From Polynucleobacter sp. AP-Melu-500A-A1 (GTDB lineage: Bacteria > Pseudomonadota > Gammaproteobacteria > Burkholderiales > Burkholderiaceae): a stretch of DNA of 64,000 bases. The position numbers and the translations under genes are program-made. The stretch lies in contig NZ_JACVOZ010000003.1 of NCBI RefSeq assembly GCF_018882125.1, positions 1 through 64,000 on the forward strand, read 5' to 3'. Below, one piece after another: positions 1 through 23,113 of the stretch (the first letter of the stretch is position 1; every line of letters begins with the position of its first letter). Under the pieces are notes generated by a model. It made no database searches, was not told where the DNA came from, and worked only from the letters and a program-made list of their open reading frames with translations.

Positions 1-3000
1 GTATTAGTTGCGTCATAGACTTTGTTGGCAACCGTAGTACCAGTCACCGTTAAGGCCTTCGGTGTAATGTTCGCTGTCAGACCGGTTGGCTGAGTTAAGG
101 TGTAGTTACCTGCGGCAGAGCCTCCAATAGTATTGGCAATAGTAACTACTAGGTTATTGCCAACATTAATTTGACTAAAGGTGGCAACCTGAGTGAGGGT
201 CAAGTTTGCGCTATCAGAACTCACTACGCCATTTAATGTTCCAGCACTAAAGCTTGCCACATTAGTACCGTCATATGCCTTATTAGCAATAGATGCTCCA
301 CTAATGGTGAGAGGAGCTTTAGTAATCACCCCATTAGTACCCGTCACGTTGCCAGCAAAGGCATAGTTAGCGCCAGCTGTGCCACTGATGGCGATACTGC
401 TAATCGTATAAGACAGGCCTGTGCCTGCATTGCTATTGGCATATGTACCTGTTCCACTAATAATGACCTGATCCCCTGCTTTTGCATTACTTGCAGTTAA
501 TGCATTACCAACAATCGCATTTGTCGCGTCATATACCTTGCTTGGGCTTGGCGCATTAATCGTTAGGGTTAATGGCGTAATGGTGATAGTGCCGGCAACT
601 GTTAATACTGGATAGCCAGTAGCATAGTTAGTGGCAAAGCCAGCATTGGTGGTTACGGTAGATGATGGCGTAAAGGCGTAGTTACCCACATTAAGATAAC
701 CACCAGTGCTGCTGTTAGCTGCTGTTAATGTAGGTGGAGTAATTGTTAAGGTGTATTTGCCTTGTGCTGCACCAACGTTACTATCGCTAGCAATCCAAGT
801 ATTGGCACTTAATCCAGCAACGACATTGAGAGCCACAATGGAGGTCGGTAAGGCACAGTTACTGCCAATCGAGCAATACGACGCAGATACTGCAGCTGAA
901 GCAGCTACGTTAGCACTGGTCAATGTGCCGTAGCTAGTCGAAGCATTACCCACAGTAATGAGTAACTGCCCTTGAGCAATGATGTTCAAGCTCGCAGTCA
1001 CTGGCGTAATGTTGTAGTTTGCTGCAGTCGCGCTTGGCGTTAAGGTGTAAGAAGCGCCTGCTATCTCACCAGCTGGACGAGTCACAGCTGCGCCAACTAA
1101 TACGCTAGAGGTATCCGCTCCTTTGAGGCCAGTTAAGGTATAGGTAAAGCTAGGGTCGGCCTGGCCTACAAACTTAGCAGCTGCATCAGCAGTCATGGTT
1201 AACGGAGCCGCTGTAATGGAACCAGTGCCGCTAATAGACAACGGTAAAGCGTAGTTCGAGAGATTAGTTGTGCCTAAAGCCACATAATTGCCTGTGCTTA
1301 AGGTGGTTGAAACGGTGGCGGCATCAGCAACGTTAGCGCTGTTATAAGTGGCGTTCGTTTGATTGATATAGGCACCCTGTCCTGCCACAAAGCCAGACAA
1401 GGTATAGCTACCAGCGTTACTTGAAGTACCAGCAGCTAAGGAAGCAGTATTGGTGCTGTCATACACCTTGGTCTGGGTAGCAATAGAGACGGTAATCGTT
1501 GCTGGTGTAATGTTCGCTGTAAAGCCTGTTGGCTGAGTTAAGGTGTAGTTACCCAGGCTGTTATTGGTCAAGCTATCGGCAATCGTGACTGCTAAGCCAG
1601 TGCCCACGTTAGATTGGCTAAAGGTGCCTGCTTGGGTCAGTGCGACAGTATCGCCAGCCACAACACCAACTAAAGTACCACCGCTTACAGTAGCCGTATT
1701 AGTTGCGTCATAGACTTTGTTGGCAACCGTAGTACCAGTCACCGTTAAGGCCTTCGGTGTAATGTTCGCTGTAAAGCCTGTTGGCTGAGTTAAGGTGTAG
1801 TTACCTGCGGCAGAGCCTCCAAGTACATCGTTAATATTGATCGCAATGCCATTACCTGAATTGGTAGAGCTAAATGTAGCAGTTGCGGTTAAGGTAACGT
1901 TTGCTGAATCAGCAGCAACAACACCGACCAAGCTGCCAGAAGTTACAGTTGCAGTGTTAGTGCCGTCATAGACTTTATTGGCAATCGCTGTGCCAGTAAC
2001 GGTTAAATTTTTAGGGGTGATGTTGGCACTTAATCCACTCAATTGAACTACTGTGTAATTCCCTGCGGCCACCCCACTAATTGTGTCATAGACAGTGACG
2101 GGAATGCTGTTACCAACATTGCCGCTAGAGAAGGTCGCACTTTGTGTGAGTGTGATATTTGCACTATCTGCACTGATTAAACCTACTAAGCTACCAAGGG
2201 TTGAGCTGGCAATAGTTGTGCCGTCATAAACCTTATTGGCAACACTAACTCCGCTAACAGTCAAGACCTTAGGAGTAATGTTCGCTGTCAGTCCAGTAGG
2301 CTGAATTAGGCTATAGTTTCCTGCGGCAGCGCCACTAATAGTATCTGCTGCAGTTACAGCTATTGAATTACCCACCGCACTCTGAGAGAAATTACCTGCC
2401 TGAGTTAAATTCACCACATCGGATCCAATAACGCCTATCAATGACCCACCAGTAATAGTTGCAGTAGAAGTACCATCGTAGACTTTATTGGCGGCAACAG
2501 AACTACTGCCTACTGTTAAAGCTTTAGCGGTGATAGTTGCCACATTTTTTGTATTTCCAGAGCTCGCGTTATATCCGGTATTTATGCTGTAGTTACTAAG
2601 CGATGCAGTACCACCACTACTTACCATAGATGTAACGTAATTACTGCCATTGCCAGAGACATTGGCATTGCTTACGGACACACTAGAAATTCCAGTGATA
2701 GTTTGGCCAGCCACTAATCCCGTAATTGTGTATGAGGCTGGAGCAAGCGTAGTTGTGCCGTTATATTCTCCAGATACGGTAATACCCAATGGTGCTGGGG
2801 TAATAATGGCCGTGATTCCAGAAGGCTGAACCAGAATGTAATTAGCAGCGGATGCGCCAGTAATCGAATCGCTGACGATCACTGAAGCACTTGAGCTTAC
2901 ATTAGGACTTAGTAAAGTAGCCGACTGAACTAAATTGACGGTATCACCAGAACTCACCCCTACTAAGGTGCCGCCGGTAATAGTAATAGCCGTTGTACCG

Positions 3001-5700
3001 TCATATACCTTAGAGACTGCAACAGTGCCAGTTACGGTCAATATCTTTTGATTCGCCGCAACCAAGGTTGCAATATTTTGGCCAATGCCAGATGTAGCGC
3101 TATAGGCCGGAGCAAAGGCGTAATTCGTAGCCAAAGCTGTTCCACCAGAAATAACAATACCGGTTACAAAATTACTGCCATTACTGCTGATGCTGGAGCT
3201 ATTAACGGTAACGCTACTTAAACCTGTAATCGTCTGGCCATTGATTAAGCCATTAATGGTGTAGGAAATCGGGGTGATGTTATTGGTGCCATTTGCAACG
3301 CCCACGACAGATATACCCAACATGGCTGGAGTGATATTGGCTGTAATGCCTGTTGGCTGAACTAGTCGATAGTTTGTTGATGCCACCCCTGTGATGGAGT
3401 CATTGACAATAATGATGATGCCGTTACTGACGTTGGGAGATGAGAAACTTCCGGCCTGCACTAAAGTAACCTTACCGGCATCTCCAGCAACCAAACCAAT
3501 TAATGAACCGCCAGTTAGGGTTGCGTTCGTTGTGCCATCATAAGTCTTGTGTGCTACGGTACCATCGCTGACAGTTAAAGTCTTAACGGTAATGGCTGCT
3601 GTTACACCGGTTGGTTGAATTAAGGTGTAATTGCTGCTAGATGCCCCAGAAATACTGTCATTGATGACTACGACAACTGCTGAGCCCACATTGGCACTAT
3701 TAAATGATCCCGCTTGTTTAAGCGATACCACATCGCCACCCACTACCCCAACCAATGATCCACCCCAAACGTTGACGCTGGTTGTGCCGTCATAGACTTT
3801 CGCATCAGCAAGCGTACCAGTTACGGTTAATGTTTTGGTAGACAGTGTGACGGTATTTAAGCTCGTACCCGCAGCAGTACAGGTAATAGTATTAAATGCG
3901 TAGTTGCTTGCTAGCGCTGTACCACTTCCAACAACGATAGAGCGAACAAAGTTACTGCTGTTAGCAGCGACATTGATATTAGCTACGTTAGCACTTGAGA
4001 TAGCGCTAATAGTTTCACCATTGACCAAGCCAGTCAGCGTGAATGATGTTGGAGTAACAGTGGTTGAGCCACTATAGACACCGGCTAGCGTGATGCCTAA
4101 TGGTGCTGGAGTGATATTGGCAATTACACCAGTGGGCTGAGTTAATGAGTAGTTTGCGCTTGCGCTACCGCTAATGCTATCTGAAATCGTGACGGCAATA
4201 CCAATGCCCGCATTGGCCGTAGTAAAGCTACCGGCCTTGATTAAAGTCACGTTCGCTGCATCAACACCCAGAACACCTACTAAGGTGCCGCCTGTAACGG
4301 TAGCTGCAGTTGAGCCGTCATAAACCTTATTTGCAACTGTTGTACCAGCAACTGTTAGAGCCTTTGGTGTGATATTAGCAGTCACATTAGCCGGTTGAGT
4401 CAGAATGTAATTCGCTGATGCAGGGCCACTGAGGCTATCGTTAATTGTGACGCTAATGGCATTAGCTACATTGCTTTGAGCAAAGCTGCCCGACTGAATT
4501 AAGTTCACGTTTGCAAGGTCGGCAGTGACGACACCAACCAAAGTTCCGCCCGTAATAGTTGCTGCAGTAGTGCCGTCATAGACTTTATTAGCAGCAACTG
4601 TAGTACCACCTACCGTGAGTACCTTCTGCGAGATATTGGCAGTAATACCTGTGGGCTGAGTTAAGGTGTAATTACCGCTAGCAGAACCTGAAATACTACC
4701 CACCATTACTAAGGCTACGTTATTAGCCACATTAGGTGAAACAAAAGTAGCGCTTTGCGCAAGAGTTACATTAGCTAGATCTACTGCTGAGACACCAACC
4801 AAGGAGCCACCGCTTACCGTAGCACTCTTCGTACCATCATAGGTCTTAGCGGCGATGGTGATGCCGGTTACTGTCAATGCTTTTGGAGTAAGCGTGACAG
4901 TGTTTTGAGTATTACTGCTGACCGTGTTGTATACAGGATTGATGAAATAGTTCCCGATCGATGCGGTACCTCCACCAAGAGTAATAGCCGTTACGTAGTT
5001 GCTAGTATTAGCAGATACATTAATTGCATTAATCGTTGCAGCACTAATACCAGTAATTGTTTGGCTATTAACTAAGCCAGTAATAGTAAAGGATGTTGGG
5101 GTAACTGACGTAGTGCCACTATAAACAGCATTAATAGTCACACCTAATGGCGCTGGAGTAATAGTGACCCTATTAGTTGCAGAGCTTTGTGATGTTTTAA
5201 CAGGTAAACCATTAGTCAAGGCGCTATTGAATGCGCCATTAATTAAGTAATTGAGGGATGAGAATGTATTGACACCAGTTGCAGTTCCAGCGACGGCAGT
5301 CACATAAGCATTTGCAGTATAAGCATTTGCAGAACTCACTGTGACATTAGTAATCGTGTCCCATGCTGCCAAACCTGTTGTAACGATGGTAGCGTTTTGG
5401 TTTGAATAAGAGGTTGTGCCGTTATAAACGCCACTAACGCTAATACCTAATACAGCCGGTGCAATTGAGTAAGTCCGTCCTGCTGGAACTAAAGTGACTG
5501 CTGAACCGTCTGTTGCTGATACGCTGGCAGCAGTCAGGGCAGTATTAGTCTGTACGGCATTAGCATTAGTGCCATTAGAACTTGTAGTGCCTCCCACTGT
5601 TGGACTGAACATCAGCACTGATTTAACGTAAGCCATTGTAGTCGTAGTCACACCAAAGCTTGCAGTAATAGAACCTGTATAACTCACTGTCGAGTTAGCC
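1..5700 (-). repeat. array of about 19 YDG/MBG-type protein repeats inside the giant adhesin
   Basis: On the minus strand the pattern NYTLTQPTG-x-TANITPKALTV followed by VANKVYDGT recurs roughly every 240-260 bases. About 14 units carry K(V/T/A)YD(G/A/S)T; about five carry a variant with APLGI and Y(N/S)GTT; one block near 1000-1250 looks like the related MBG domain (SYTLTPSATAANYNITPV). The stretch at 1-115 and that at 1696-1810 are almost identical, showing recent copying within the array. Such repeats form Ig-like or beta-rich stalks in bacterial exoproteins; their role here is inferred. Confidence 0.8.
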
Positions 5701-8700
5701 TGCAACCAAGTATTAGCCGAGGCTGAGTTGTAGCCTGTACCGTACTCCGCAGAATAGTTGGAATTGAGGGTGACAGAAATAGCCAGAGTATTAGTTAGTC
5801 TCTGACGATAGTTGATGAAGTTGCCACCTGTATAAGCGGATGCATTTACAAGAGCCCCTCCCAATATGCCGTAGGAGATATTTTTAGTCGCATCCGCATT
5901 AGCAGTGGTAATGCCGATAGCATTGGCAATCGTACAACCTGTAGTGCAAGCTGCATTCTCAGGCGCTGCCATAGAGATGCCTACAACTCCTCCAGTATTG
6001 GTAATGGTACCTACGGCTGTGACATTACCGCCTGTAATTGTGCCAGCCGCAATACCATCACCAGCAGTAATCCGAATGCCATTTACACCAGAATTAGTTA
6101 CGCCTGTAAGGCTGACATTACCAACAGCATCAACGATGACACCACCAGTAGCTCCCGAATTCTGAATGAGCGCGCCAGTAGTGATATTGCCACTAGAGCC
6201 CAGACCAGTTAAGTAAACGCCGGTAGCGCCAGTAATTGTTGCAGATGCTGAGGTATAAATAGCGTGACTTGAAGTTGCGCTTGAGTAGCCATTAAATGTA
6301 ATCGCACCGTTCATAGTGCTAGTTGCAGTCGCAATGCCTGCAGCACTACTGGCGTATATACCGTAATTTGCAGTTGAACTGCCTGTGATAGTAATTCCAC
6401 CACCAGTAGTTTTAATTGCTGCAGAATAATTGACGCCGGAAGAGTTGCTTGATACACCGCTAATTACGATATTGCCAGTAGCATAAATAGCATCATTTAT
6501 GCCAATTCCAACGTTGGAAGCTGTAGCCAGTGTGGACAAGTTATTAGTCGTTGTATTAATAAAGCCAGTAGCTGGTGTGCAGCCCGTACCAGAACAACCG
6601 AAGGTGTTATCAATCAATACATAACCAGGCAAGAATATTGTTGATGTACCAATGGCACCAGGATCAATAGAAGATCCTGCTGACTTGGCAATATAGTTAA
6701 TTACAGAACCTACTCCTGTAGTGAAAGTTAGTACTCCACTGGTAATATTGGAAGTCCTAGCGCCTCTAGTGGTGTCATAAATCACATTGGCTATTGGCGT
6801 ACCCGTATTCGCCACCAAACTGATCGCACCAGTTTGGTTGATGATGTTATTCGAAGTGAAGGTGATGTTGCTACCGACTGCGTTGTCAGTGATAGCACCA
6901 GTTTGGGTAATACCAGTATTGCCCCCTCCTGCGACATTATTAGCTGTCACTGTGAGGTTGCTACCGCCTGCATTAATCGTTACCGCACCGAGTGAGACGA
7001 TAGTCGATGCTGCGCCACCATTACCAGTGATCGTGACATTGTTAGCTGTGATAAGGCCAGTTACTGTTACGACCGTTGCCGTTGCGGTTGCAGTAGTTTG
7101 TGATCCGGTAATGGTCACTATCCCACCAGTGATGGCGCCAGTGTCATTAATAGCCGAACCTGTAGTGATAGTTGCGTTGATCGTGACCGCTTGGCCAGTG
7201 GCGGTAATGGCGCCTGAGCTGGTATACCCAGTGCCGGTTTGACCATTCGCAGTAATGGTAACGCCACCAGCACTAGAGGCGATGGCATTGGCGCCTTGCA
7301 CAAAGCCTACGCCTGTGCCATTCGCTACCGCATTAATCATGATACCAGTAGTGCCTGCTAAAGTTCCAGCAGATAATGCGCCACCTAAAGTAATCGCATT
7401 ACCGTTCACTGCAGCATTAGCCGGTGTTGTCGCTGTTGCACAGCCTAGGCAAGTGTTATCCAAAAGGATGTAGCCAGGAACACTAATGGCTGGTGGCGAG
7501 ATCGTGCCACCATTAGTCTTGATGATGTAGTTAATGGCTGAAGTCGATCCAGTAGCAATCGTTAAGGCAGCACTACTAATGGTCGAAGTCTTATTACCGG
7601 TGGTAGTGTCGTAGGTAATATTCGAGGCAGTGCCGCTAGTGTTTGCTGCTAAGCTGATTGCACCGTTCTGGCTAATATTGTTATTCGAGATAAAGCTAAT
7701 GTTGGTACCGCTGACCCCAGTAATCGCGCCAGACTGATAGATACCACCTGCAGTACCTGGGGTAGCAATCACATTACCGGCAATCGTGATGCTGCCACCG
7801 GTTGCGCCAGCATTAATGGTCAGAGCATTTAAGTAGGCATCATAAGAAGGTGCACCGGAGGAGGTACCAGTAATCGTGATGTTATTGGCGGTGATTAAAG
7901 CAGTACCATAGACGCCATAACTAGTTGTCGTGCCTCCAGTCAAGATGACATTACTACCCGTTGAAGTCATTGCTGCTGTGTAACCAATACCTTGATTGGC
8001 GCTAGCAACACCATTAGCAGTAATAGCGCCAGCGGCATAAATCGCGTTATTAATCGTTAAACCAACAGAAGTAGTTGCTAATGAGGCTAGATTATTAGTT
8101 GTCGTATTAATAAAGCCAGTAGCTGGTGTACAGCCTGTGCCAGTACAGCCAAAGGTGTTATCGATCAATACATAACCAGGCAATGTCAGGGTTGAACTAC
8201 CGATCGTGCCTGGATTAATAGCTGAACCAGCAGACTTCACAATGTAGTTAATACCTGAGGTATTGGTGCCAGCAGCAATCGTCAAGGCGCCAGTCGTGAT
8301 ATTGGAAGCTTTAGTACCAGAGGTCGTATCGTAGATGATGTTTGCTGCAGTACCGCCCGTATTCGCCACCAAACTGATCGCACCAGTTTGGTTGATGATG
8401 TTATTCGAAGTGAAGGTGATGTTGCTACCGACTGCGTTGTCAGTGATAGCACCAGTTTGGGTAATACCAGTATTGCCCCCTCCTGCGACATTATTAGCTG
8501 TCACTGTGAGGTTGCTACCGCCTGCATTAATCGTTACCGCACCGAGTGAGACGATAGTCGATGCTGCGCCACCATTACCAGTGATCGTGACATTGTTAGC
8601 TGTGATAAGGCCAGTTACTGTTACGACCGTTGCCGTTGCGGTTGCAGTAGTTTGTGATCCGGTAATGGTCACTATCCCACCAGTGATGGCGCCAGTGTCA

Positions 8701-11700: not shown

Positions 11701-14700
11701 CTTATGGAATTATTGGGGCCTAGTTCTACGCCATTACCAGTAGCGGTGGATGTACCGGTGATATTAACTGCCCCATTATTGGCAACAATAGGGCTTAAAC
11801 CCCAAGATCCATTGAGGTTAGCAACGGCATTGCCGGTAGTACTTGTACCCGTAATATTAATGTTGCCAGTAGTAGCTGTTAAACCCGCCATAACCATGAC
11901 ACCGCCTCCACCTCCTGTAGTTCCACTGGCATTGATGCCGTTAATCGTAATTGCCGTGCCGCTCAGAGTGTTATTGATAACGATGCCGTTACTGGTAGTG
12001 GCTAAAGTAGCCCAACTAGCGAGATTCTTATTCAAGTAGCCCGATACAGGGGCGCATCCTGATCCTGAACAGCCAAAGGTGTTGTCTAAAGTAATTGATC
12101 CAGGGACGGCAACTGCACCACCGATGGTGATTGCACTACCTGCAGCCAATACAGAATAATTTATGCCTGAAGTAGACCCAGCAGAAATTGTTAAGGCGGC
12201 TGTATTAATAGTAGAAGTTTTATTACCTGCGGTTGTATCGTAAGTAATATTGGCTGCTGTACCGCTAGTATTCGCTACCAGACTGATAGCGCCATTCTGA
12301 CTAATGTTGTTGTTCGAGATGAAGGTGATATTTGAGCCATTGGTACCAGTAATCGCACCTGCTTGATAAATACCGCCATTGGCGCCCGGAGTATTAATGA
12401 TATTGCCAGTTACAGTAATACTGCCACCAGTAGCAGCGCTGTTAATAGTGAGAGTAGATAGCTGAACATCCCAAGCAGCGATTGCTGTAGATGTTCCAGT
12501 GATGGTGATGCTGTTGCCAGCAATTAAGGATGATGGGTTATAGACACCATAGCTATTTGTAGTACCACCATTCAGCGTAACCGCCCCACCAGTAGATGTA
12601 ATGATTGCCGAGATACCAATACCTTGGTTAGCGCTGGCTACACCATTAATCGTAATGGCGCCAGTAGCATAAATGACACCATTGATTGTGACGCCTATAG
12701 ATCCTGTTGCTAAAGTGCCCAAATTATTAGCGGTGGTATTAATAAAGCCAGAGGTTGACGCGCATCCAGTGCCGGTACAACCATAGGTATTGTCAATTAA
12801 TACGTAACCTGGAAGAGCAACCGAAGTGCTTCCAATAACACCTGGGTTAATCGCCCCGCCATCAGACTTCATTATGTAATTAATAGCTGATGTAGATCCT
12901 GAGGCAATGGTTAATGCACCAGAGAGAATAGTTGAACTTTTATTACCAGTAGTGGTGTCGTAAGTAATATTGGCTGCTGTACCGCTAGTATTCGCTACCA
13001 GACTGATAGCGCCATTCTGACTAATGTTGTTGTTCGAGATGAAGGTGATGTTTGAGCCATTGGTACCAGTAATCGCACCTGCTTGATAAATACCGCCATT
13101 GGCGCCCGGAGTATTAATGATATTGCCAGTTACAGTAATACTGCCACCAGTAGCAGCGCTGTTAATAGTGAGAGTAGATAGCTGAACATCCCAAGCAGCG
13201 ATTGCTGTAGATGTTCCAGTGATGGTGATGCTGTTGCCAGCAATTAAGGATGATGGGTTATAGACACCATAGCTATTTGTAGTACCACCATTCAGCGTAA
13301 CCGCCCCACCAGTAGATGTAATGATTGCCGAGATACCAATACCTTGGTTAGCGCTGGCTACACCATTAATCGTAATGGCGCCAGTAGCATAAATGACACC
13401 ATTGATTGTGACGCCTATAGATCCTGTTGCTAAAGTGCCCAAATTATTAGCGGTGGTATTAATAAAGCCAGAGGTTGACGCGCATCCAGTGCCGGTACAA
13501 CCATAGGTATTGTCAATTAATACGTAACCTGGAAGAGCAACCGAAGTGCTTCCAATAACACCTGGGTTAATCGCCCCGCCATCAGACTTCATTATGTAAT
13601 TAATAGCTGATGTAGATCCTGAGGCAATGGTTAATGCACCAGAGAGAATAGTTGAACTTTTATTACCAGTAGTGGTGTCGTAAGTAATATTGGCTGCTGT
13701 ACCGCTAGTATTCGCTACCAGACTGATAGCGCCATTCTGACTAATGTTGTTGTTCGAGATGAAGGTGATGTTTGAGCCACTGACATTATTAGTAATGGCG
13801 CCAGATTGGGTGATACCAGTATTACTACCAGCAGCAGTATTATTTGCCGTAACGGTGATATTTCCAGAGGGGTTATTACGAACGTATCCGACCCCACTTA
13901 AAACTAGATTAGCAGCGCCATAACCACCAGTGGTTGACGATGTTGCAAGAGTCATCGCTGTTGCAGTTCCAAGACCCCCTGCAGCAGAACCATTCCAAAG
14001 CGATAAAATATTAGTAGAGCCACCCAATAGATTAGATGCTCCACCTGTGGAAAGAAGAGTTGTGTTGTACTTGGCAGAACTCTCTGTTGCGTAAACAGAA
14101 CCACTACTAGACGTTAAAACGACTTGAACCATCTTGGAATAAGTTGCATCAGCATATCCAATAATATAAGTAGCGGTATTAGAGGTTGAGCTGAGTAAAG
14201 CAACTGCAGTAACTGGATTACCATAAGCAACACTCGTTCCAGCCACCAAAATACTTATTGCTGCAGAGCTAACAGTTGGCATTGTTGCGCCGCTTACTAA
14301 ACCAATTAAGCTACCTGAGGTACCTGCTGCGTTAGAAATAACTGTTGGACTTGATGAAGTTCCGGCTGCATATCCTATACCAAGCGTCATTGCACCTGCA
14401 GTCACAATGGTAGTTGCGGTAGTGCCTGTGCCATTGATTGTGATGCCGGTTTGGGTTGTAATGGCACCCGCTAATTGAACTGCCTGACCCGTAGTAGAAG
14501 TGCCGTTAATTGTTAATGAGCCTGTTGATGCAGTTAATGTTCCTGCGGCGGAACTATAAACGGAATAGTTAATACCTGAGCCTGTAACTGCGATTGAACC
14601 CATAGAAGTGGTGATTGCAGCAGTCATGGCAACAGAGTAATACCCTGTCTGAGAGGCGCCAATTAATGTAATGTTCTTAGTTGCAGTAATGGCTGAGTTA

Positions 14701-17700
14701 ACATTCACACCAATAATTGCGCCGGTTAATGTACCTGAGTTTGCATTCGTAATATAGCCAGACACAGGCGCTCCACTCGCAGCGCCGTATGTGTTATCTA
14801 ACAGCACATAGCCAGGTAAAGAAGCCGTGGAAGAGCCAATACTGCCCGGATTAATTCCGGAGCCAGCTGATTTGGCAATGTAATTAACATCACTAGTAGA
14901 TCCTGCCGCAATCGTTAATACTCCACCAGTAATATTGGCAGCTTTATTGCCACTCGTAGTGTCATAGGTAATAGCACTTGCTGTCCCAGAAGTATTAGCA
15001 GCTAAAGTGATTGCGCCAGTTTGATTAATGATGTTGTTAGAAATGAAACTAATATTGCCACCAGAAGCATTATTGGTAATGGCACCAGTTTGAGTAATTC
15101 CAGTGTTAGCTCCTGCAGCTGTATTGTTGGCTATTACAGACAAATCAGTACCGCCTGTGGCAATTGTGATTGCACCAAGTGAGACGATTGTTGAAGCAGT
15201 CGTTGCAGTACCGGTAATTGCAATACTTTTTGCGGAAATAGCTCCCGCAAGAACTACAGGGGAACTTACATAAGTATTACTATTAATGGTTATTGCGCCA
15301 GAATTAGCGGTAATTGTTCCTGTTGATAAGGAACTGACTCCAGGATTGGTGGCAATAGTTGTATTTGTTGAGCTTGCAGTTAAGTTGATATTGCCTGTAG
15401 TGGAAGTTAAAGCTGATGTTAGATAAATTAATCCGACTGAGTTTGCATTTACGCCGTTACTACTGATATCAATATTTCCATATACAGTCAATGGCGCTGT
15501 TGTTGCATAGTTATTGACTACAAAACCATAACTTGCGGTTGCAGTATTTTTTAACTGAATATTTGCATTTCCACCAATATTAAGACCAACTGAGTACTCA
15601 AACGACCCTACGACATTAGCAATAGAATCTGCACCAGCTACAGATAAATTTCCTCCTGCACTACTTGTTGTTAAGCCAGATGTAGTTGTATTAATTGCTG
15701 CAGCCAAATATATAGGCGCATTTGCAATCGTCCCCGGGGTAATGATTGTTCCTGAAATTGATCCGCCTGTTGCGTCAAGTACCACGTATCCACCCTTGGT
15801 GGTAATGCTTCCAGAGGCTCCGTTATAAATATTGGCACATACACCCGCTGAACAAGTGGCTATTGCATTGGCAGCATAAAAAGATTGGGCAAGTACATTT
15901 ACCTTTCCAGTGCTAGTTGAGTTAATCGCACCATTTATCGCAATTTGACCACTAGACAAGTAATTGAGCGTAAGATTTCCAGCCCCAGTATTGGTAGTTG
16001 TACCAGTAAGAGTAATAGATTGCGCTGTGCCGGTTCTATTGTCAAAGGTCAAGCCAACATTCACACTAGCTGCTGGAGCAAATGTTAAGTTAGCAGTTTG
16101 AGTGATGGTTCCATCAGCAATGATTTGAACGCTTGTTCCAGCATTAATTGCCGTTTGAATTTGAGTGGCACTAACATTTGTTTGATTTGTAAATAAGAGT
16201 GGATTGCTTCCAGATGAAGTGCCACTAGTAGTGCTGATAGTGACGTTCGTTGGATCCAATAACCACATCCCCCCTCTACCAGCATTAATACTCGATAGTA
16301 AGTTGATGGTTTGTCCAGAGGTTTCGATAAAACCACCGCCGGTAGTGTTCAGTAGATCGGTTTGATTTACGTTGATGATGCTATTGGCATCAAGATTAGT
16401 AAAGATGGAGAATGGGAGTGCGCTGTTGTTACCTGCGTTCTTCGCATCATTACCAATGAGGATGTGTCCACCTTGGATATATCCAGTTGCTTCTACTGTG
16501 GAAGACTCTAATGCAGTGTAATTCGTAGCGGCAATCCCAATTTGTCCACCACGGCCATTAGCGCCATTGGTTTGGATGATTGCACTTTGTAAATTGATAT
16601 CACCAGATGTGGTGATAAGTTGGATGTTGCCGCCATTACCTGAGCCATTGGCTTGGAGTTGGGCGTTATTAATAACTTGGTTATTAATGGTTTGAAGGGT
16701 AATGGCGCCGCCGGGGCCGTTATTACCATTTGCCTGGATTAAAGATCCAGATTGAAGATTGCTACTGTTTGTTACTGCTGTGATCGTACCGCCGGTGTTG
16801 CCGTTGGCTTGTACTGATCCTGCAATAGAAAGTTGTGTAGCTTGCAGATTGAAGTTGCCGCCAGGGCCATTATTGCCGTTAGCCTGCATGACAGAGCCCG
16901 ATTGGGTAATTACTTGTGGGGCGGCAATATTAATGGTGCCCCCTGCTGAACTAATGGCAGGTTGATCGGCTGTTGCTGGAGCGGCATTAGCGGTAATACT
17001 TGCTGTTGAGGTAGCTGTTACGCTATTGCTTGCAGTCATCGTAATCGTGCCGCCAGCAGTATTGGGGCTTGCTGTTGCTGCACTTGCTGCTTGTGTAACC
17101 TGGCTTGGCGTTTGCGCGGTAAAGGTCAAGCTCGCTAATGGAGCACTTGGTGCTGATGGAGTTGTTCCACTTGATGCGCTTGCCACATTAATAATGGTGG
17201 TCGTTCCCTGCCCTGCTGCTTGAGCAGCATTGGCGATATTGGTATTGAGGACTGCTGCTGTAGGCGCGGTCAGATTGACAACATTAACCGCTGGAGTAAT
17301 GACTGCTGAACCAGCATTAGCATTATTGGCTAGGTTGTTCACCACTGCTGGGATTGATACCTTTGCAGCATTGGCACTCACATTATTACTTGCTACTGTA
17401 GCTGCTACTGCAGTACTTGCTGCGGCTGCTTGTGCTTTAGCTGCTATTTGGGTAGTAGTTGTGTTGGCATTGGCTGTTGGTGCAGAAGGCGCCTGAGCAG
17501 CTAACTCCTCTTCTCTGGTTCTGGTGGTTGCCGTATTGCTTGTAGTAGCGCTACCGGTGGTAGATGAGCCATTGGAGCTCACCCTTCCTGCCACGATAAT
17601 CGCTCCGCCGGTGACATTAATCGATCCACTTGATCCACCAGTTGATGAGAGTGAGCCATTAACAGTGACTGCCTGGGCAGTTGCAGTGATCTGATTTGCA

Positions 17701-19271
17701 CTAGTTGTACTTCCAGCTGATAGGGATAGAGCAGCAGAGTTAGTAACCAAGCTACCAGTATTACTAGTGCTAATGGTGCCATTGTTCGTAATAGTGCCTG
17801 TAGCGTTGAGCGTTAAGGTGGTTGCCGCTCCGTTACTTGGGGCAATGGCTGCGCCTGCAGCTACCGTTAAATCACCCTTGACTTCAATAGTGACGTTAGA
17901 AGTTGCCAAGGCAGTGGAGATGGCTGATGCGGTTGACGCACTAATGGTCATAGATTCTGGGTCAAGCAGCCATGATCCGGCTTTGCCAAGTTTTGCGGTG
18001 ACATCGACTACCGTGGATTTAAGGATCTCTAAAACACCGGACGAACTGGTTTCTACAAAGCCGCCGTTACCGCCATTTATTCCGCCTTGGGCCTTGAAGG
18101 TGCCTGCAACGATGGTTTTGACTGCAGACCAAATGTTGATATCGCCTCCATTACCCTTACTGGTAGATGAGGCATCCACTGTGGCGCCGGCTTGTACTGT
18201 TGTGGTTTTAGCTAGATTCTCAGCTTGAACATTTGATCGGGTACCGTCTTGGTTCTGAGTAAAAGTGACTTTAGTAGTACCGACGTTAATCAGACCCCCA
18301 TTAGCTGTGCCTCTGGCATTGGTATTAGATCCGTCAGCCAAAGTGATGTCTTCACCTTGCAAAGTAATCTTGCCACCATCGCTATTAGATCCCTTGCCAT
18401 TGGCACTGATTTGTCCAGCTTGGGTGATGTTTGATGCAATGAACTCGATTACGCCACCATTGTTCACCGCAGAAGAAGCAGAGATGCGACCAGTGTTTTT
18501 GATCACGGAGTTCATCAGATTACTTGCTGCGCCTGCAGCAATGATGACTAGGCCACCTTCGACCTTAACAAGGCGCTTATTCTCGATCAGGGCGTTAACG
18601 GTCGATTCGTCTACTTTGACCGAAATGAGGTTATCCCCCCTAAAGTCCAGAGTGATTTGTTTGCCTGCTGCTAGAGCCACTGTTCCAGCTCCCATTTTGG
18701 CAACAAGGTAACCGTCATTACGAACTTCAGGAGCTAGTAATGCAATGTACCCATCTTTGGAATTGGTAGTGATTTTTCCTTCATTCAAAATCTTGCCAGT
18801 ACCGTCACCTTTATAGGTGGATTTTCCATCCATAAAATCTTTGTCTGAGATGTTCATCGTTGATGCCACAACTCCTGCTGCATCCACCTGTGCACCACGT
18901 CCAAAAGTGATGCCATTTGGGTTAACCAAAACAACTTGTCCATTGGCTTTTATTGCACCATCAATAACGCTTGGAGATGAACCTGTAACTCGGTTCAAAG
19001 TTACCGCTGAACTATTGGGTTGATTAAAGTTAACGGTCGCATCTTTTCCGACGTTAAAACTGTCCCAATTGACAACTGCTCTTTGACTACTCTGATTAAC
19101 GTTTGTTTGAAGACCAGACTGAGTAATGACTGCTGTTCCAGCGACGACTTTTCCGCCACCTGGGTTCATATTCACATTCACTGTTTGTGCGTGCGAAAAA
19201 TTGACGTGCAACAAGACCGCCAATGCGAGCAATAAAAAAATTGCTACACGTTTAGCGATTGGATTCTGCAA
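1..19271 (-). CDS. giant filamentous haemagglutinin-like (TpsA-type) exoprotein with YDG/MBG repeats, partial at left edge
   Basis: Secreted or surface-bound adhesin of the two-partner secretion type. One frame (codon left ends at coordinates divisible by 3) was checked at positions 3, 9716, 13869, 16266 and 19169 and read without a stop, giving at least 6,423 codons; the C terminus lies beyond the window. In order: signal peptide (residues 1-28, ending FSHA), TPS haemagglutination domain (about 33-150, with NPNGITFGRG near residue 117), a beta-helix stretch with two WLLDP motifs that follow GGFVETS, an Ala/Thr-rich linker (about 17180-17500), repeat units of about 240-260 residues (about 5900-15900), and YDG/MBG repeats (1-5700). 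There is no in-frame ATG before 19169, which would delete the signal peptide, so I chose TTG at 19271; TTG at 19319 is possible and neither has a clear ribosome binding site. No TpsB partner is visible. Function as adhesin is family knowledge. Confidence 0.9.
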   Translation of the reverse strand, partial: MQNPIAKRVAIFLLLALAVLLHVNFSHAQTVNVNMNPGGGKVVAGTAVITQSGLQTNVNQSSQRAVVNWDSFNVGKDATVNFNQPNSSAVTLNRVTGSSPSVIDGAIKANGQVVLVNPNGITFGRGAQVDAAGVVASTMNISDKDFMDGKSTYKGDGTGKILNEGKITTNSKDGYIALLAPEVRNDGYLVAKMGAGTVALAAGKQITLDFRGDNLISVKVDESTVNALIENKRLVKVEGGLVIIAAGAASNLMNSVIKNTGRISASSAVNNGGVIEFIASNITQAGQISANGKGSNSDGGKITLQGEDITLADGSNTNARGTANGGLINVGTTKVTFTQNQDGTRSNVQAENLAKTTTVQAGATVDASSTSKGNGGDINIWSAVKTIVAGTFKAQGGINGGNGGFVETSSSGVLEILKSTVVDVTAKLGKAGSWLLDPESMTISASTASAISTALATSNVTIEVKGDLTVAAGAAIAPSNGAATTLTLNATGTITNNGTISTSNTGSLVTNSAALSLSAGSTTSANQITATAQAVTVNGSLSSTGGSSGSINVTGGAIIVAGRVSSNGSSTTGSATTSNTATTRTREEELAAQAPSAPTANANTTTTQIAAKAQAAAASTAVAATVASNNVSANAAKVSIPAVVNNLANNANAGSAVITPAVNVVNLTAPTAAVLNTNIANAAQAAGQGTTTIINVASASSGTTPSAPSAPLASLTFTAQTPSQVTQAASAATASPNTAGGTITMTASNSVTATSTASITANAAPATADQPAISSAGGTINIAAPQVITQSGSVMQANGNNGPGGNFNLQATQLSIAGSVQANGNTGGTITAVTNSSNLQSGSLIQANGNNGPGGAITLQTINNQVINNAQLQANGSGNGGNIQLITTSGDINLQSAIIQTNGANGRGGQIGIAATNYTALESSTVEATGYIQGGHILIGNDAKNAGNNSALPFSIFTNLDANSIINVNQTDLLNTTGGGFIETSGQTINLLSSINAGRGGMWLLDPTNVTISTTSGTSSGSNPLLFTNQTNVSATQIQTAINAGTSVQIIADGTITQTANLTFAPAASVNVGLTFDNRTGTAQSITLTGTTTNTGAGNLTLNYLSSGQIAINGAINSTSTGKVNVLAQSFYAANAIATCSAGVCANIYNGASGSITTKGGYVVLDATGGSISGTIITPGTIANAPIYLAAAINTTTSGLTTSSAGGNLSVAGADSIANVVGSFEYSVGLNIGGNANIQLKNTATASYGFVVNNYATTAPLTVYGNIDISSNGVNANSVGLIYLTSALTSTTGNINLTASSTNTTIATNPGVSSLSTGTITANSGAITINSNTYVSSPVVLAGAISAKSIAITGTATTASTIVSLGAITIATGGTDLSVIANNTAAGANTGITQTGAITNNASGGNISFISNNIINQTGAITLAANTSGTASAITYDTTSGNKAANITGGVLTIAAGSTSDVNYIAKSAGSGINPGSIGSSTASLPGYVLLDNTYGAASGAPVSGYITNANSGTLTGAIIGVNVNSAITATKNITLIGASQTGYYSVAMTAAITTSMGSIAVTGSGINYSVYSSAAGTLTASTGSLTINGTSTTGQAVQLAGAITTQTGITINGTGTTATTIVTAGAMTLGIGYAAGTSSSPTVISNAAGTSGSLIGLVSGATMPTVSSAAISILVAGTSVAYGNPVTAVALLSSTSNTATYIIGYADATYSKMVQVVLTSSSGSVYATESSAKYNTTLLSTGGASNLLGGSTNILSLWNGSAAGGLGTATAMTLATSSTTGGYGAANLVLSGVGYVRNNPSGNITVTANNTAAGSNTGITQSGAITNNVSGSNITFISNNNISQNGAISLVANTSGTAANITYDTTTGNKSSTILSGALTIASGSTSAINYIMKSDGGAINPGVIGSTSVALPGYVLIDNTYGCTGTGCASTSGFINTTANNLGTLATGSIGVTINGVIYATGAITINGVASANQGIGISAIITSTGGAVTLNGGTTNSYGVYNPSSLIAGNSITITGTSTAIAAWDVQLSTLTINSAATGGSITVTGNIINTPGANGGIYQAGAITGTNGSNITFISNNNISQNGAISLVANTSGTAANITYDTTTGNKSSTILSGALTIASGSTSAINYIMKSDGGAINPGVIGSTSVALPGYVLIDNTYGCTGTGCASTSGFINTTANNLGTLATGSIGVTINGVIYATGAITINGVASANQGIGISAIITSTGGAVTLNGGTTNSYGVYNPSSLIAGNSITITGTSTAIAAWDVQLSTLTINSAATGGSITVTGNIINTPGANGGIYQAGAITGTNGSNITFISNNNISQNGAISLVANTSGTAANITYDTTAGNKTSTINTAALTISAGSTSGINYSVLAAGSAITIGGAVAVPGSITLDNTFGCSGSGCAPVSGYLNKNLASWATLATTSNGIVINNTLSGTAITINGINASGTTGGGGGVMVMAGLTATTGNINITGTSTTGNAVANLNGSWGLSPIVANNGAVNITGTSTATGNGVELGPNNSISAKSITIIGSEVGGTYAVYLNTMTIVAGGTNLNVTGTVNLNTDNGIYQAGAINDNATGSNISFISNGIINQTGAITLVANAASTAVSVTYNTTSGNKSANITTGALTVAAGANTSAINYIAKSSGSAINPGAIGSSTVALPGYVLIDNTYGCTGTNCTPVTGFINPTINNIASLATGSVGITLNNAIYATNTIAMNGSANANQGIGISAAITSTGGAVSLTGSTTNSYGVYNPSSLITANSITVTGTSSAAATWDVQLSALTINSTAIGGSITVIGNVINTPGANGGIYQSGAITGANGSSISFISNNNISQNGAINLPANASGTPANITYDVTTGNKTSTISATGILSIASGSTSAINYIEIASGAALTTSAIGSSTIPLPGYVLFDNTYGCAGTGCTPVSGYLNSSLANWATLVTTSNGIVVSTAIYATNSITINGINASGTTGGGGGVMVMAGLTATTGNINITGTSTTGIGVANLNGSWGLSPIVANNGAVNITGTSTATGNGVELGPNNSISAKSITIIGSEVGGTYAVYLNTMTIVAGGTNLNVTGTVNLNTDTGIYQAGAINDNAVGGNIRFISNGIINQTGAISLVANTGGTAANIIYDTTSGTKASNITTGALTIAAGTNTSGINYIVKSAGSAINPGTIGSSTLTLPGYVLIDNTFGCTGTGCTPATGFINTTTNNLASLATTSVGLTINNAIYAAGAITANGVASANQGIGYTAAMTSTGSNVILTGGTTTSYGVYGTALITANNITITGTSSGAPSYDAYLNALTINAGATGGSITIAGNVIATPGTAGGIYQSGAITGVSGTNISFISNNNISQNGAISLAANTSGTASNITYDTTTGNKTSTLSSAALTIATGSTSAINYIIKTNGGTISPPAISVPGYILLDNTCLGCATATTPANAAVNGNAITLGGALSAGTLAGTTGIMINAVANGTGVGFVQGANAIASSAGGVTITANGQTGTGYTSSGAITATGQAVTINATITTGSAINDTGAITGGIVTITGSQTTATATATVVTVTGLITANNVTITGNGGAASTIVSLGAVTINAGGSNLTVTANNVAGGGNTGITQTGAITDNAVGSNITFTSNNIINQTGAISLVANTGGTAANIIYDTTSGTKASNITTGALTIAAGTNTSGINYIVKSAGSAINPGTIGSSTLTLPGYVLIDNTFGCTGTGCTPATGFINTTTNNLASLATTSVGLTINNAIYAAGAITANGVASANQGIGYTAAMTSTGSNVILTGGTTTSYGVYGTALITANNITITGTSSGAPSYDAYLNALTINAGATGGSITIAGNVIATPGTAGGIYQSGAITGVSGTNISFISNNNISQNGAISLAANTSGTASNITYDTTTGNKTSTISSAALTIATGSTSAINYIIKTNGGTISPPAISVPGYILLDNTCLGCATATTPANAAVNGNAITLGGALSAGTLAGTTGIMINAVANGTGVGFVQGANAIASSAGGVTITANGQTGTGYTSSGAITATGQAVTINATITTGSAINDTGAITGGIVTITGSQTTATATATVVTVTGLITANNVTITGNGGAASTIVSLGAVTINAGGSNLTVTANNVAGGGNTGITQTGAITDNAVGSNITFTSNNIINQTGAISLVANTGTPIANVIYDTTRGARTSNITSGVLTFTTGVGSVINYIAKSAGSSIDPGAIGTSTIFLPGYVLIDNTFGCSGTGCTPATGFINTTTNNLSTLATASNVGIGINDAIYATGNIVISGVSSNSSGVNYSAAIKTTGGGITITGSSTANYGIYASSAAGIATATSTMNGAITFNGYSSATSSHAIYTSASATITGATGVYLTGLGSSGNITTGALIQNSGATGGVIVDAVGNVSLTGVTNSGVNGIRITAGDGIAAGTITGGNVTAVGTITNTGGVVGISMAAPENAACTTGCTIANAIGITTANADATKNISYGILGGALVNASAYTGGNFINYRQRLTNTLAISVTLNSNYSAEYGTGYNSASANTWLQANSTVSYTGSITASFGVTTTTMAYVKSVLMFSPTVGGTTSSNGTNANAVQTNTALTAASVSATDGSAVTLVPAGRTYSIAPAVLGISVSGVYNGTTSYSNQNATIVTTGLAAWDTITNVTVSSANAYTANAYVTAVAGTATGVNTFSSLNYLINGAFNSALTNGLPVKTSQSSATNRVTITPAPLGVTINAVYSGTTSVTPTSFTITGLVNSQTITGISAATINAINVSANTSNYVTAITLGGGTASIGNYFINPVYNTVSSNTQNTVTLTPKALTVTGITIAAKTYDGTKSATVSGGSLVGVSAVDLANVTLAQSATFVSPNVANNVALVMVGSISGSASGNYTLTQPTGITANISQKVLTVGGTTVAANKVYDGTTAATITGGTLVGVVTADLANVNLIQSGSFAQSNVANAISVTINDSLSGPASANYILTQPANVTANITPKALTVAGTTVANKVYDGSTAATVTGGTLVGVLGVDAANVTLIKAGSFTTANAGIGIAVTISDSISGSASANYSLTQPTGVIANITPAPLGITLAGVYSGSTTVTPTSFTLTGLVNGETISAISSANVANINVAANSSNFVRSIVVGSGTALASNYAFNTITCTAAGTSLNTVTLSTKTLTVTGTLADAKVYDGTTSVNVWGGSLVGVVGGDVVSLKQAGSFNSANVGSAVVVVINDSISGASSSNYTLIQPTGVTAAITVKTLTVSDGTVAHKTYDGTTNATLTGGSLIGLVAGDAGKVTLVQAGSFSSPNVSNGIIIIVNDSITGVASTNYRLVQPTGITANITPAMLGISVVGVANGTNNITPISYTINGLINGQTITGLSSVTVNSSSISSNGSNFVTGIVISGGTALATNYAFAPAYSATSGIGQNIATLVAANQKILTVTGTVAVSKVYDGTTAITITGGTLVGVSSGDTVNLVQSATLLSPNVSSSASVIVSDSITGASAANYILVQPSGITAIITPAPLGITVSGEYNGTTTLAPASYTITGLVAGQTITGISSVSVSNANVSGNGSNYVTSMVSSGGTASLSNYSINTGYNASSGNTKNVATITAKALTVGSSSVAANKVYDGTSTATITGGSLIGVIGSDVVNLTQAGNFSQSAVGNSIAVTAADTISGAAAGNYSLIQPTGLTANITPKVLTVSGVSVANKVYDGTTIASSTLGSLVGLISADSANITLTQSATFSSGNVGNSIPVTVYDTISGVAAGNYTVVQLSGLSANITPKNLTVTGTAIANKVYDGTNTATVTSGSLVGVVAADSANVTLTATATFSSTNSGNGIAININDVLGGSAAGNYTLTQPTGFTANITPKALTVTGTTVANKVYDATNTATVSGGTLVGVVAGDTVALTQAGTFSQSNVGTGLAVTIADSLTNNSLGNYTLTQPTGFTANITPATITVSIATQTKVYDSTNTASLAAGTSSNAGSYTLSGFVAGQGAYINQTNATYNSANVADAATVSTTLSTGNYVALGTTNLSNYALPLSISGTGSITAAPLTMTADAAAKFVGQADPSFTYTLTGLKGADTSSVLVGAAVTRPAGEIAGASYTLTPSATAANYNITPVTASLNIIAQGQLLITVGNASTSYGTLTSANVAASAAVSASYCSIGSNCALPTSIVALNVVAGLSANTWIASDSNVGAAQGKYTLTITPPTLTAANSSTGGYLNVGNYAFTPSSTVTTNAGFATNYATGYPVLTVAGTITITPLTLTINAPSPSKVYDATNAIVGNALTASNAKAGDQVIISGTGTYANSNAGTGLSYTISSIAISGTAGANYAFAGNVTGTNGVITKAPLTISGASIANKAYDGTNVASFSAGTLNGVVSSDSANLTLTQVATFSQINVGNNLVVTIANTIGGSAAGNYTLTQPTGLTANITPKALTVTGTTVANKVYDATN
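6803..9954. repeat. 1,554-bp in-frame tandem duplication (two copies plus about 44 bases)
   Basis: Sequence at p equals sequence at p+1554 from about 6803 to 8400; 1554 is 518 codons, so the adhesin frame is kept. Both copies appear identical apart from one difference I noticed, T7580 versus G9134. Homology ends where copy 1 continues TTATTCG at 8401 and the second continues CCGTTA at 9955. Each copy holds two of the adhesin's repeat units. Confidence 0.92.
9988..11952. repeat. diverged direct repeat pair, 9988-10404 and 11536-11952, offset 1,548 bp
   Basis: The two blocks of about 417 bases share long identical stretches with scattered substitutions, at an offset of 1548 bases (516 codons). 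The offset is close to the 1,554-bp duplication next door, so it looks like an older round of two-unit duplication in the same adhesin gene. Confidence 0.8.
12241..13779. repeat. 720-bp in-frame tandem duplication (two copies plus about 99 bases of a third)
   Basis: Period 720 bases (240 codons): 12241, 12961 and 13681 start the same sequence. The only difference I noticed between the two full copies is A12330 versus G13050; the partial third copy has G at 13770 like copy 2. Flanking sequence before 12241 and after 13779 diverges. Confidence 0.92.
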
Positions 19272-19488
19272 ATGCGAATCTAGAGAAGAATTTTTTACAG
19301 GGAGCGACCCTGTAAGCAAATCAAGGTACAAATCGTAGGTCTTTACTAGTAAAACGACAGATGAAATTTTCGCGTTTTAGAGGGTTTTTAAGAATTCACC
19401 CTAGGGGTAACAAATTGACCAAAATAGGGAAAAATTGGATGTTTTTTCCGCTTTATGAAATTTCCTAAGGAATAAATGGAGGGATGTT

Positions 19489-19557
19489 ATGCCACCCCCG
19501 TCTGTTTCATCTGAAACTCCAGACCCCAGAAATGAGCCAAATTTTGAGTGCAGTTGA
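19489..19557 (+). CDS. possible 22-residue small protein with strong Shine-Dalgarno
   Basis: ATG at 19489 is preceded by GGAGG at 19478-19482 with 6-base spacing, and the frame runs to TGA at 19555-19557. The peptide begins MPPPSVSSE and ends FECS; it has no membrane segment. An overlapping ATG at 19484 gives another short frame. The only support is the ribosome binding site, so it may be chance or a leader peptide. It points away from the adhesin gene. Confidence 0.2.
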   Translation: MPPPSVSSETPDPRNEPNFECS

Positions 19558-19646
19558 GACTGTTCATGAGTGATTTCGGATGTAATTCAGACGTGATATT
19601 CAATCAACGCATACACCATGGTTGCTTGTTGATGCAGCCATTCATC

Positions 19647-19674
19647 ATCATCAATCATGTAATAAATTGATGAT
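19647..19674. promoter_or_regulatory. 9-bp perfect inverted repeat upstream of the adhesin gene
   Basis: ATCATCAAT at 19647-19655 and ATTGATGAT at 19666-19674 are exact inverted copies with a 10-base spacer, centred about 390 bases upstream of the adhesin start. The layout suits a dimeric regulator; no family is recognised. Confidence 0.35.
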
Positions 19675-20050
19675 TATTTAGGGATATATTTTTAAAAAAA
19701 TATGCTAGAAATAGATTGTAGTTCTAGCGTAGATTTGACAAATCTACTCATCAAAATGACGACTCATTTTTACATGTTTATATTGCAAAAATGAACCTGT
19801 AATTTGGCTCTTATTCAATGCTAAATATTGAACTAAAAAATGTTTGTTTTTTTGATTATGGGATGACGATATTTTTTAAAAATAGGTGAGTCTTTTTTGT
19901 ACTTTTATTGCATAAGATTTACAGCTTTTTTGAGTCAATTTTTTACGTAAAAATGTTGCTCATTTTTCGATATTTATTAGTCAATTTTTGATTGAAAAAT
20001 TAGTCTGTTTTTTCATTATTTACTCGAGTATTTTGTCCTAAATAATAGAG

Positions 20051-23104: not shown

Positions 23105-23113
23105 AAAACCATC

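What the first reader, a model, noticed from the sequence alone, without database searches (positions are those of the whole stretch)
1..19271. Single reading frame of at least 6,423 codons encoding a giant exoprotein without an ATG start
The minus-strand frame stays in register at five places checked across 19 kb and never stops in what I read, so this would be one of the larger bacterial proteins. The signal peptide lies upstream of the first in-frame ATG (19169), so translation must use TTG (19271 or 19319), without a clear ribosome binding site, or the start region is damaged. A protein of this size with a weak start suggests tight or phase-like control.
Basis: partly seen in the sequence, partly recalled or inferred. 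Interest (0 to 1): 0.65.

Follow-up and report, generated by a model that had tools for sequence, protein, structure and literature searches.

The report
Giant surface protein, conserved TTG start
A freshwater bacterium encodes a surface protein of about 8,400 amino acids whose gene, like those of some relatives, appears to start at a weak non-ATG codon with a conserved RNA hairpin a fixed distance behind it, which may be a built-in brake or gate on making a very costly protein.

Summary
The minus-strand frame 3..19331 has no stop in 6,443 codons, the signal peptide lies upstream of the first in-frame ATG (19169), and the frame runs off the contig end. The organism is an unnamed Polynucleobacter. 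The gene is a giant two-partner-secretion exoprotein (TpsA) with an HMW1/EtpA-type TPS domain, long repeats and a YDG/MBG tail. The missing 3' part is very probably on contig C7, giving about 8,427 codons; a close relative carries the same layout as one 7,853-codon frame. Giant TpsA frames are common in the genus, up to 17,033 codons here; a 'giant gene region' of the genus is in print. What looks new is the start. The missing ATG is not damage. In 18 of 186 Polynucleobacter genomes one tpsA start shares TTG (14) or GTG (4), never ATG, and an RNA hairpin with a nearly constant UCGCU loop beginning exactly 24 nt downstream. The stem covaries; Rfam and an order-wide sample gave no other match. 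This favours TTG 19331 over 19271 or 19319. The hairpin is well supported by sequence; a gating role is inference. No phase-variation tract was found.

The parts
3..19331 (-). giant tpsA reading frame, 6,443 codons, 3' end cut by the contig end
19329..19331 (-). best candidate start codon, TTG (position 1 of the start element)
   Evidence: NTG 24 nt before the hairpin loop in 18 of 18 members (14 aligned by hand-picked in-frame NTG, 4 found by the model)
19295..19315 (-). RNA hairpin UUACAGGG-UCGCU-CCCUGUAA inside the 5' end of the frame
   Evidence: the 9-pair model helix spans 19294-19316
19285..19331 (-). whole start element as matched by covariance model R1 (52.2 bits; the only hit in the own genome at E<=5, with 150 of 1,024 first-look candidates scored)
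   Evidence: our sequence was one of the 14 the model was built from
19188..19331 (-). extended signal peptide, 48 residues if translation starts at 19331 (cleavage SHA/QT by inspection)
18405..19145 (-). TPS secretion domain (PF05860, E 1.1e-40) with NPNG motif
19399..19410 (-). leader block TTACCCCTAGGG, similar in groups B and C (role unknown)
6802..15288 (-). long internal direct repeats of the passenger (families D1-D3; spacings of about 1,554 and 720 nt; some copies 100% identical over 300 nt)
84..4889 (-). array of 13 YDG-domain matches (PF18657); MBG_2 (PF18676) at about 987-1202

Best explanation
The frame is the 5' three quarters of an intact giant TpsA adhesin gene of a Polynucleobacter species. 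The product is made with an extended Sec signal peptide, its TPS domain is handed to the outer-membrane partner TpsB, and a very long repetitive passenger is threaded to the cell surface. Translation starts at TTG 19331 with no clear Shine-Dalgarno sequence, on a start module shared by one tpsA gene in each of 18 Polynucleobacter genomes: NTG (T or G, never A), about 15 nt of spacer, then a hairpin with a UCGCU loop. With the start codon in the ribosomal P site, the hairpin base lies about where mRNA enters the 30S subunit (recalled). I propose that it positions or gates initiation at a deliberately weak start and so keeps synthesis of a costly, secretion-limited protein low or regulated. Shown by computation: the open frame, domains, partner gene, conserved non-ATG start region and covarying hairpin. 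Inferred: the exact start codon, the join to contig C7, surface export, and the function of the hairpin.
For: TPS domain over its cut-off; solved relatives EtpA, HxuA and HMW1-type adhesin. tpsB with POTRA_2 + ShlB on C7. C7's right end continues the frame in the same YDG repeat register, with 65 bp missing. Start: model R1, built from 14 starts, finds 18 of 186 genus genomes at E<=0.001, one hit each. The 4 not used in training all have TTG at position 1, a frame open from there into a tpsA signal peptide and TPS domain, and no in-frame ATG upstream. Outside stem and loop the only invariant columns are T2 and G3 of the start codon and A40. Covariation score 0.467 against 0.165 shuffled, 0/500 as high. 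Between start and signal peptide the other two frames have stops in 13 and 11 of 14, frame 0 in 0 of 14 (frame 0 was chosen as the open one, so the 0 is partly by construction). Anti-SD pairing median -0.9 kcal/mol, equal to shuffled leaders, against -2.4 for 25 ATG ORFs of the window (one-sided P 0.02). L024, L028 and L037 have no ATG/GTG/TTG between hairpin and signal peptide. Pairs L037/L038 and L024/L028 show third-position excess in the first 51 nt ([2,3,6] and [1,2,6]). L189 keeps TTG + hairpin with an unrelated leader.
Against: In the closest trio (L016-L018) the first 60 nt show no third-position excess, while the stretch from 19271 on does in two of three pairs; three group B pairs show none in their first 51 nt; over the 14 starts, positions +3..+37 show no codon-position bias. 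That fits RNA-level constraint but also an untranslated leader with a start farther down. Our own hairpin is only modestly more stable than synonymous recodings of its peptide (109 of 2,000 as stable). Stem pair 16-38 forms in only 7 of 18, and the number of pairs with two-sided change (7) is reached by 35 of 500 shuffles. The model contains the start codon, which favours finding NTG. Genus searches scored only 33-40 candidates a genome with strict filters, so weaker members, perhaps with ATG, may be missed. SD-like stretches cannot be excluded in some leaders (L037 -3.9, L038 -3.6). No expression evidence was available; PMC7522526 has none of the six terms tried. The join C5-C7 rests on repeat register and synteny, not on reads.
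Confidence: 0.68

Rival explanations
1. The hairpin lies in the untranslated leader and translation starts downstream of it, here at TTG 19271; the hairpin is then a 5'-UTR element (target of an RNA-binding protein or small RNA, or a stability element).
For: Codon-position signature in our trio begins only at about 19271; no codon-position bias in +3..+37 over 14 rows; TTG 19271 gives a compact signal peptide; L030, L036, L047 and L050 have a second in-frame TTG after the hairpin.
Against: L024, L028 and L037 have no ATG/GTG/TTG between hairpin and signal peptide. T/G alternation with invariant TG exactly 24 nt before the loop in 18 of 18 looks like a start codon. Third-position excess in the first 51 nt of two pairs.
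Confidence: 0.22
2. The conserved dyad is a DNA operator or promoter element for a regulator, not an RNA element.
For: A leader block with the near-palindrome CCCTAGGG lies upstream in several members; a two-component system lies beside the second tpsB on C7.
Against: The arms change by compensatory substitutions while the non-palindromic loop is kept; a protein-binding dyad would be expected to keep its half-sites. L189 keeps the hairpin without the upstream block.
Confidence: 0.08
3. The start region is decayed and the gene is not expressed, or is phase-variable.
For: A different tpsA copy, L076 in G107, has one A fewer than L026 in the A run after the TTG and an in-frame TGA; tracts of this sort could slip.
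Against: ATG-less starts are the rule in the near clade: 30 of 40 tpsA loci at >=64% identity lack an in-frame ATG within 70 codons before the signal-peptide core, against 8 of 30 tpsB (P 9e-5, not corrected for relatedness). No tandem repeats at the start. The frame is intact for thousands of codons in three species.
Confidence: 0.04

Closest known systems
TpsA exoproteins of two-partner (type Vb) secretion: EtpA, HMW1, HxuA, FHA
   Same: N-terminal TPS domain with NPNG motif, signal peptide, repetitive passenger, partner TpsB with POTRA and ShlB-type barrel
   Different: several times longer (recalled lengths); YDG/MBG tail; non-ATG start with hairpin; our last 30 residues lack the cysteine pair of the anchor described for HMW1/HxuA
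Polynucleobacter asymbioticus 'giant gene region' (GGR), gene up to 42 kbp (PMC5644125, passages seen)
   Same: same genus, giant gene in a variable island
   Different: the passages name no family, partner or start; stop-to-stop frames here reach 17,033 codons (about 51 kb). Not shown to be the same gene.
odc1 RNA motif (PMC8632094, passages seen)
   Same: conserved UUG starts tied to a conserved RNA structure
   Different: conserved structure largely upstream of the starts, with sequestered RBS, pseudoknot and uORF; ours is a simple hairpin downstream of the start
UUG/GUG start replacement with stronger SD (Belinky et al. 2017, PMC5622118, abstract seen)
   Same: weak start codons
   Different: there weak starts are selected against and tend to be compensated by a stronger SD; here weak starts persist with no clear SD

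Membership tests
TpsA exoprotein (two-partner secretion) | TPS domain over the curated cut-off | tested here: met
   PF05860 140.1 bits against cut-off 33.5; TIGR01901 85.2 against 29.1
TpsA exoprotein (two-partner secretion) | NPNG motif in the TPS domain | tested here: met
   VNPNGITF in the translation; motif named in PMC5422565 (passages)
TpsA exoprotein (two-partner secretion) | Sec signal peptide | tested here: inconclusive
   clear by inspection and by a hydrophobicity window; no predictor run
TpsA exoprotein (two-partner secretion) | linked TpsB (POTRA + ShlB barrel) | tested here: met
   C7 23652-25568, linked to C5 by register and by synteny in G147
TpsA exoprotein (two-partner secretion) | beta-helical passenger | not tested
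   no structure prediction was made
HMW1/HxuA-type anchored TpsA | C-terminal cysteine pair | tested here: not met
   last 30 residues on C7 end ...QILEESPPILIDTK, no Cys; a pair is seen in 18 of 22 giant TpsA ends examined
CdiA contact-dependent inhibition exoprotein | C-terminal toxin domain with immunity gene | tested here: inconclusive
   no Pfam or NCBIfam match in the last 977 aa; next gene is a PPIase
Phase-variable gene by simple repeats | tandem repeat array at start or promoter | tested here: not met
   no array in 19000-19900 at score 30
Known RNA family (Rfam 15) | match to a covariance model at the start region | tested here: not met
   19 tpsA loci: one match up to E 1, below its gathering score and elsewhere in L040; window: three tRNAs only at gathering

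The most novel reading that the evidence does not exclude
A previously undescribed class of bacterial translation-initiation element: an obligatory non-AUG start codon without Shine-Dalgarno sequence, coupled to a hairpin with a conserved UCGCU loop whose base sits at the 30S mRNA entry. The hairpin replaces the SD for start selection, or is the docking site of a regulator, and meters synthesis of giant surface proteins in Polynucleobacter.
Probability: 0.3. Interest if true: 0.68.

Novelty: new variant of a known kind. Interest (0 to 1): 0.52.

Why it matters
Freshwater bacteria with genomes near 2 Mb devote up to about 51 kb to a single surface protein (G062). How such a protein is initiated, paced and exported is open. 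A conserved weak start tied to a hairpin is a concrete, easily tested handle on initiation without ATG and without a clear Shine-Dalgarno sequence, and it shows that annotating these genes from the first ATG would remove the signal peptide.

Tried and rejected
Assembly or sequence damage at the start: rejected, same start region in two other species and a wider pattern. Phase variation by repeats: no array. Known RNA family: none. Promoter/terminator scan of 19250-19950: one promoter-like site, on the opposite strand, against 3.4 in shuffles; two terminator-like sites on the gene's strand (19499-19480 and 19810-19793) against 0.4 in shuffles, not followed up. 'Size requires a TTG start': rejected, frames of 12,083 and 10,154 codons have ATG (L055, L056). 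Consensus folds of other start groups: group J (3 rows) folds strongly, the rest weakly or not; too few sequences to claim. The model hit in G132 (E 0.0068) shows no tpsA frame, was judged chance and is not among the 18.

Limits of the ATG count. One search listed 99 matched places; 88 loci were used, 11 fragments were not, and two refetched repeats (L104, L105) were dropped. The measure is mechanical: in-frame ATG within 70 codons before the most hydrophobic 11-mer. Chance ATGs far upstream count as 'ATG' (L030 and L031, whose inferred starts are TTG and GTG). In the tpsB control at least L108 is scored without ATG only because a wrong hydrophobic stretch was picked, so 8 of 30 is if anything too high. 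The non-ATG label is clustered but changed many times on the tree (20 changes against 29.4 shuffled), and over all 88 tpsA loci the excess over tpsB is weaker (47 of 88 against 8 of 30, P 0.012). Rows are related, so these P values are too optimistic.

Recalled and not from a call: position of the 30S mRNA entry; lengths of classical TpsA proteins; the names MutT-like, phosphomannomutase-like, ESPR-like and GNRA loop.

Full report
Observation. The minus strand of window 3..19331 reads as one frame of 6,443 codons without a stop. The window is base 1-64000 of contig C5 (594,552 bp) of a 2.29 Mb, 10-contig genome, so the frame is cut by the contig end. The first in-frame ATG is 19169, after the signal peptide. 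In-frame TTG codons before the signal-peptide core lie at 19331, 19319 and 19271.

Identity. Named relatives place the organism in Polynucleobacter: the nearest are sp. AP-Latsch-80-C2 and sp. 15G-AUS-farblos, both 92% over the first 359 residues. The N terminus is a TPS secretion domain (PF05860, E 1.1e-40; TIGR01901); the five matches among solved structures are two EtpA, two heme/hemopexin-binding protein and one 'Adhesin' sequence, 2odl, which PMC5422565 names as HMW1 (passages). The far part carries 13 YDG matches and an MBG_2 domain. The middle has long direct repeats, some copies identical over 300 nt at 1,554 nt spacing.

The rest of the gene. A YDG search of the own genome hit contigs C5, C7 and C10 only (18 matches). 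C7 (33,654 bp) has at its right end a 5'-open minus-strand frame of 1,961 codons (27770-33652) that ends in a stop. The end of C5 matches window 1696-1772 and the end of C7 matches window 1504-1630, two parts of one YDG unit with 65 bp between them, in the same reading frame. If the join is right and the gap is that remainder, the protein has 6,443 + 23 + 1,961 = 8,427 codons from TTG 19331. Downstream on C7 lie a PpiC-type prolyl isomerase, an M48 metalloprotease and a convergent tpsB with POTRA_2 and ShlB domains.

The genus. With the N-terminal 359 residues, 58 of 151 Polynucleobacter genomes have a match; stop-to-stop frames reach 17,033 (G062), 15,362 (G037), 15,344 (G124) and 14,866 (G120) codons, all in single-contig genomes; the two largest were read whole and end in stops. 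Giant genes in this genus are in print: PMC5644125 (passages seen) describes a 'giant gene region' with a gene up to 42 kbp as a replacement island. Of 22 C-terminal ends examined (ours; G147, G062, G037 and G047; 17 with a stop among 20 stretches, where I took the longest 5'-open frame as the giant's), 18 carry a cysteine pair close to the end; ours, G147, L196 and L208 do not, and the first three share an ending of the form ESPPI-ID. PMC5422565 (passages) describes a disulfide-closed C-terminal anchor for HMW1 and HxuA.

Missing ATG. One search listed 99 matched places; I used start regions of 88 distinct loci. 47 of 88 have no in-frame ATG within 70 codons before the hydrophobic core of the signal peptide; among the 40 loci at >=64% identity it is 30 of 40. 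The same measure on 30 tpsB genes of the genus gives 8 of 30, at least one of them by a misplaced core. Fisher P is 9e-5 for the near clade and 0.012 for all; rows are related, so both are too optimistic.

The start element. In 14 loci (groups B, C and ours, D) the start regions align without gaps from an NTG codon: TTG or GTG, then a hairpin whose loop begins exactly 24 nt after the first base of the start codon. The loop is UCGCU in 15 of the final 18 and UCACU, UCACC or UUACC in L037, L024 and L040. The stems differ and compensate, for example ACAGGG/CCCUGU here, GAAAGG/CCUUUC in group B and UUCAGG/CCUGAA in L051. On the 14 rows, 26 cells change on both sides against 9.3 in shuffles (0 of 500 as high), and sliding the partner by 1-3 columns lowers every measure. 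A covariance model found 16 of 151 genomes at E<=0.05, one of them judged a chance hit, and 18 of 186 at E<=0.001 when all held genomes of the genus were searched, one per genome; only 33-40 candidates per genome were scored, with strict filters. Four of the 18 (L171, L187, L188, L189) were not in the training set; all four have TTG at model position 1, an open frame into a tpsA signal peptide and TPS region, and no in-frame ATG upstream. L171, L187, L188 and L189 form 9, 8, 6 and 6 of the 9 model pairs; L188 and L189 pair further with a bulge. Start codons of the 18: TTG 14, GTG 4 (L031, L037, L038, L051), ATG 0. With 18 rows the covariation score is 0.467 against 0.165 shuffled, 0 of 500, though the number of pairs with two-sided change alone (7) is reached by 35 of 500. 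In an order-wide sample of 300 genomes from 134 genera only two matched, both Polynucleobacter. Rfam has no match at these starts.

Which codon starts. For TTG 19331: NTG with T/G alternation and invariant TG; the other two frames have stops between start and signal peptide in 13 and 11 of 14 while frame 0 has none (partly by construction, as I chose the open frame), and the four untrained members are open from model position 1 too; three loci (L024, L028, L037) have no ATG/GTG/TTG between hairpin and signal peptide; pairs L037/L038 and L024/L028 show third-position excess in the first 51 nt. Against: the first 60 nt in our trio lack it, as do three group B pairs, and columns +3..+37 over 14 rows show none. 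RNA-level constraint explains this, but so would an untranslated leader. I put about 0.7 on 19331 and 0.2 on 19271. Anti-SD pairing of the 14 leaders is no better than shuffled (-0.9 kcal/mol) and weaker than for 25 ATG ORFs of the window (-2.4, one-sided P 0.02); those control starts are first-ATG guesses, and L037 and L038 reach -3.9 and -3.6.

Mechanism. Belinky et al. (PMC5622118, abstract) report that AUG to UUG switches are selected against and that weak starts tend to be compensated by a stronger SD. Here the weak start is kept without clear SD and with a hairpin at fixed distance. The most likely reading is a metering or gating element of initiation. The hairpin base, about 15 nt after the start codon, would lie near the 30S mRNA entry (recalled). 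It could hold the start codon in place, keep the initiation region unpaired, or bind a regulator through its loop. None of these was tested. A precedent for conserved UUG starts tied to RNA structure is the odc1 motif (PMC8632094, passages), otherwise different. Listings of my paper searches showed no account of this element or of TpsA in Polynucleobacter, but most lists were capped (for example 8 of 2,640 papers) and the library holds open-licence papers only.

Synonymous recoding. Against 2,000 recodings of the same peptide, 8 of 15 hairpins are matched in at most 14 recodings and the other 7 in 43 to 120; ours is matched in 109, so its own stability is weak evidence; the covariation carries the case.

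Noticed in passing
own genome, contig C7:2-9700 (-) and contig C10:1-6912: A second giant tpsA: a TPS frame of 3,233 codons runs off C7's left end, and C10 is one open frame of 2,303 codons with PATR and weak YDG matches and a similar repeat, so C10 is probably its inside. Its start has about 200 stop-free, ATG-free codons before the signal peptide.
   Followed up: partly
own genome, contig C7:10581-12386 (+), 12403-17461 (-): A second tpsB beside the second tpsA, followed by a LuxR-type response regulator and two sensor kinases, a candidate local regulatory system.
   Followed up: partly
window 20051-20582 (-): A RelE/RelB-type toxin-antitoxin pair lies between nadA and the giant tpsA, directly upstream of it.
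   Followed up: no
window 19480-19499 and 19793-19810 (-): Two terminator-like stem-loops on the gene's strand between the RelBE pair and the tpsA start (2 against 0.4 in shuffles): ends of relBE or part of the tpsA leader.
   Followed up: no
window 22814-23416 (+): A second type II toxin-antitoxin-like pair (TIGR02683 toxin at 22814-23104, small ORF after it).
   Followed up: no
L190, L192-L195, L197-L203, L205-L207; G062, G037, G047: Most giant TpsA ends examined (18 of 22) have a cysteine pair, as in HMW1-type anchoring; a minority, ours included, has a different ending.
   Followed up: partly
G047 (15G-AUS-farblos) C10:87693-102293: A tpsA of 4,867 codons in a genome not among those with a tpsB match; only about 630 bp separate it from the phosphomannomutase-like gene, so the PPIase, M48 and tpsB genes of relatives are missing there.
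   Followed up: partly
L076 (G107:C1 near 562748): A second-copy tpsA with one base fewer than L026 in the A run after the TTG, and an in-frame TGA: a probable pseudogene.
   Followed up: no
L086, L089, L092: Three TpsA with an ESPR-like extended signal peptide also lack ATG at the expected start (TTG in two, no ATG/GTG/TTG in L086).
   Followed up: no
L021, L022, L025, L026, L054: By eye, another start group may hold a hairpin with a GNRA-type loop about 48-50 nt after its conserved TTG; the consensus fold did not settle it.
   Followed up: partly
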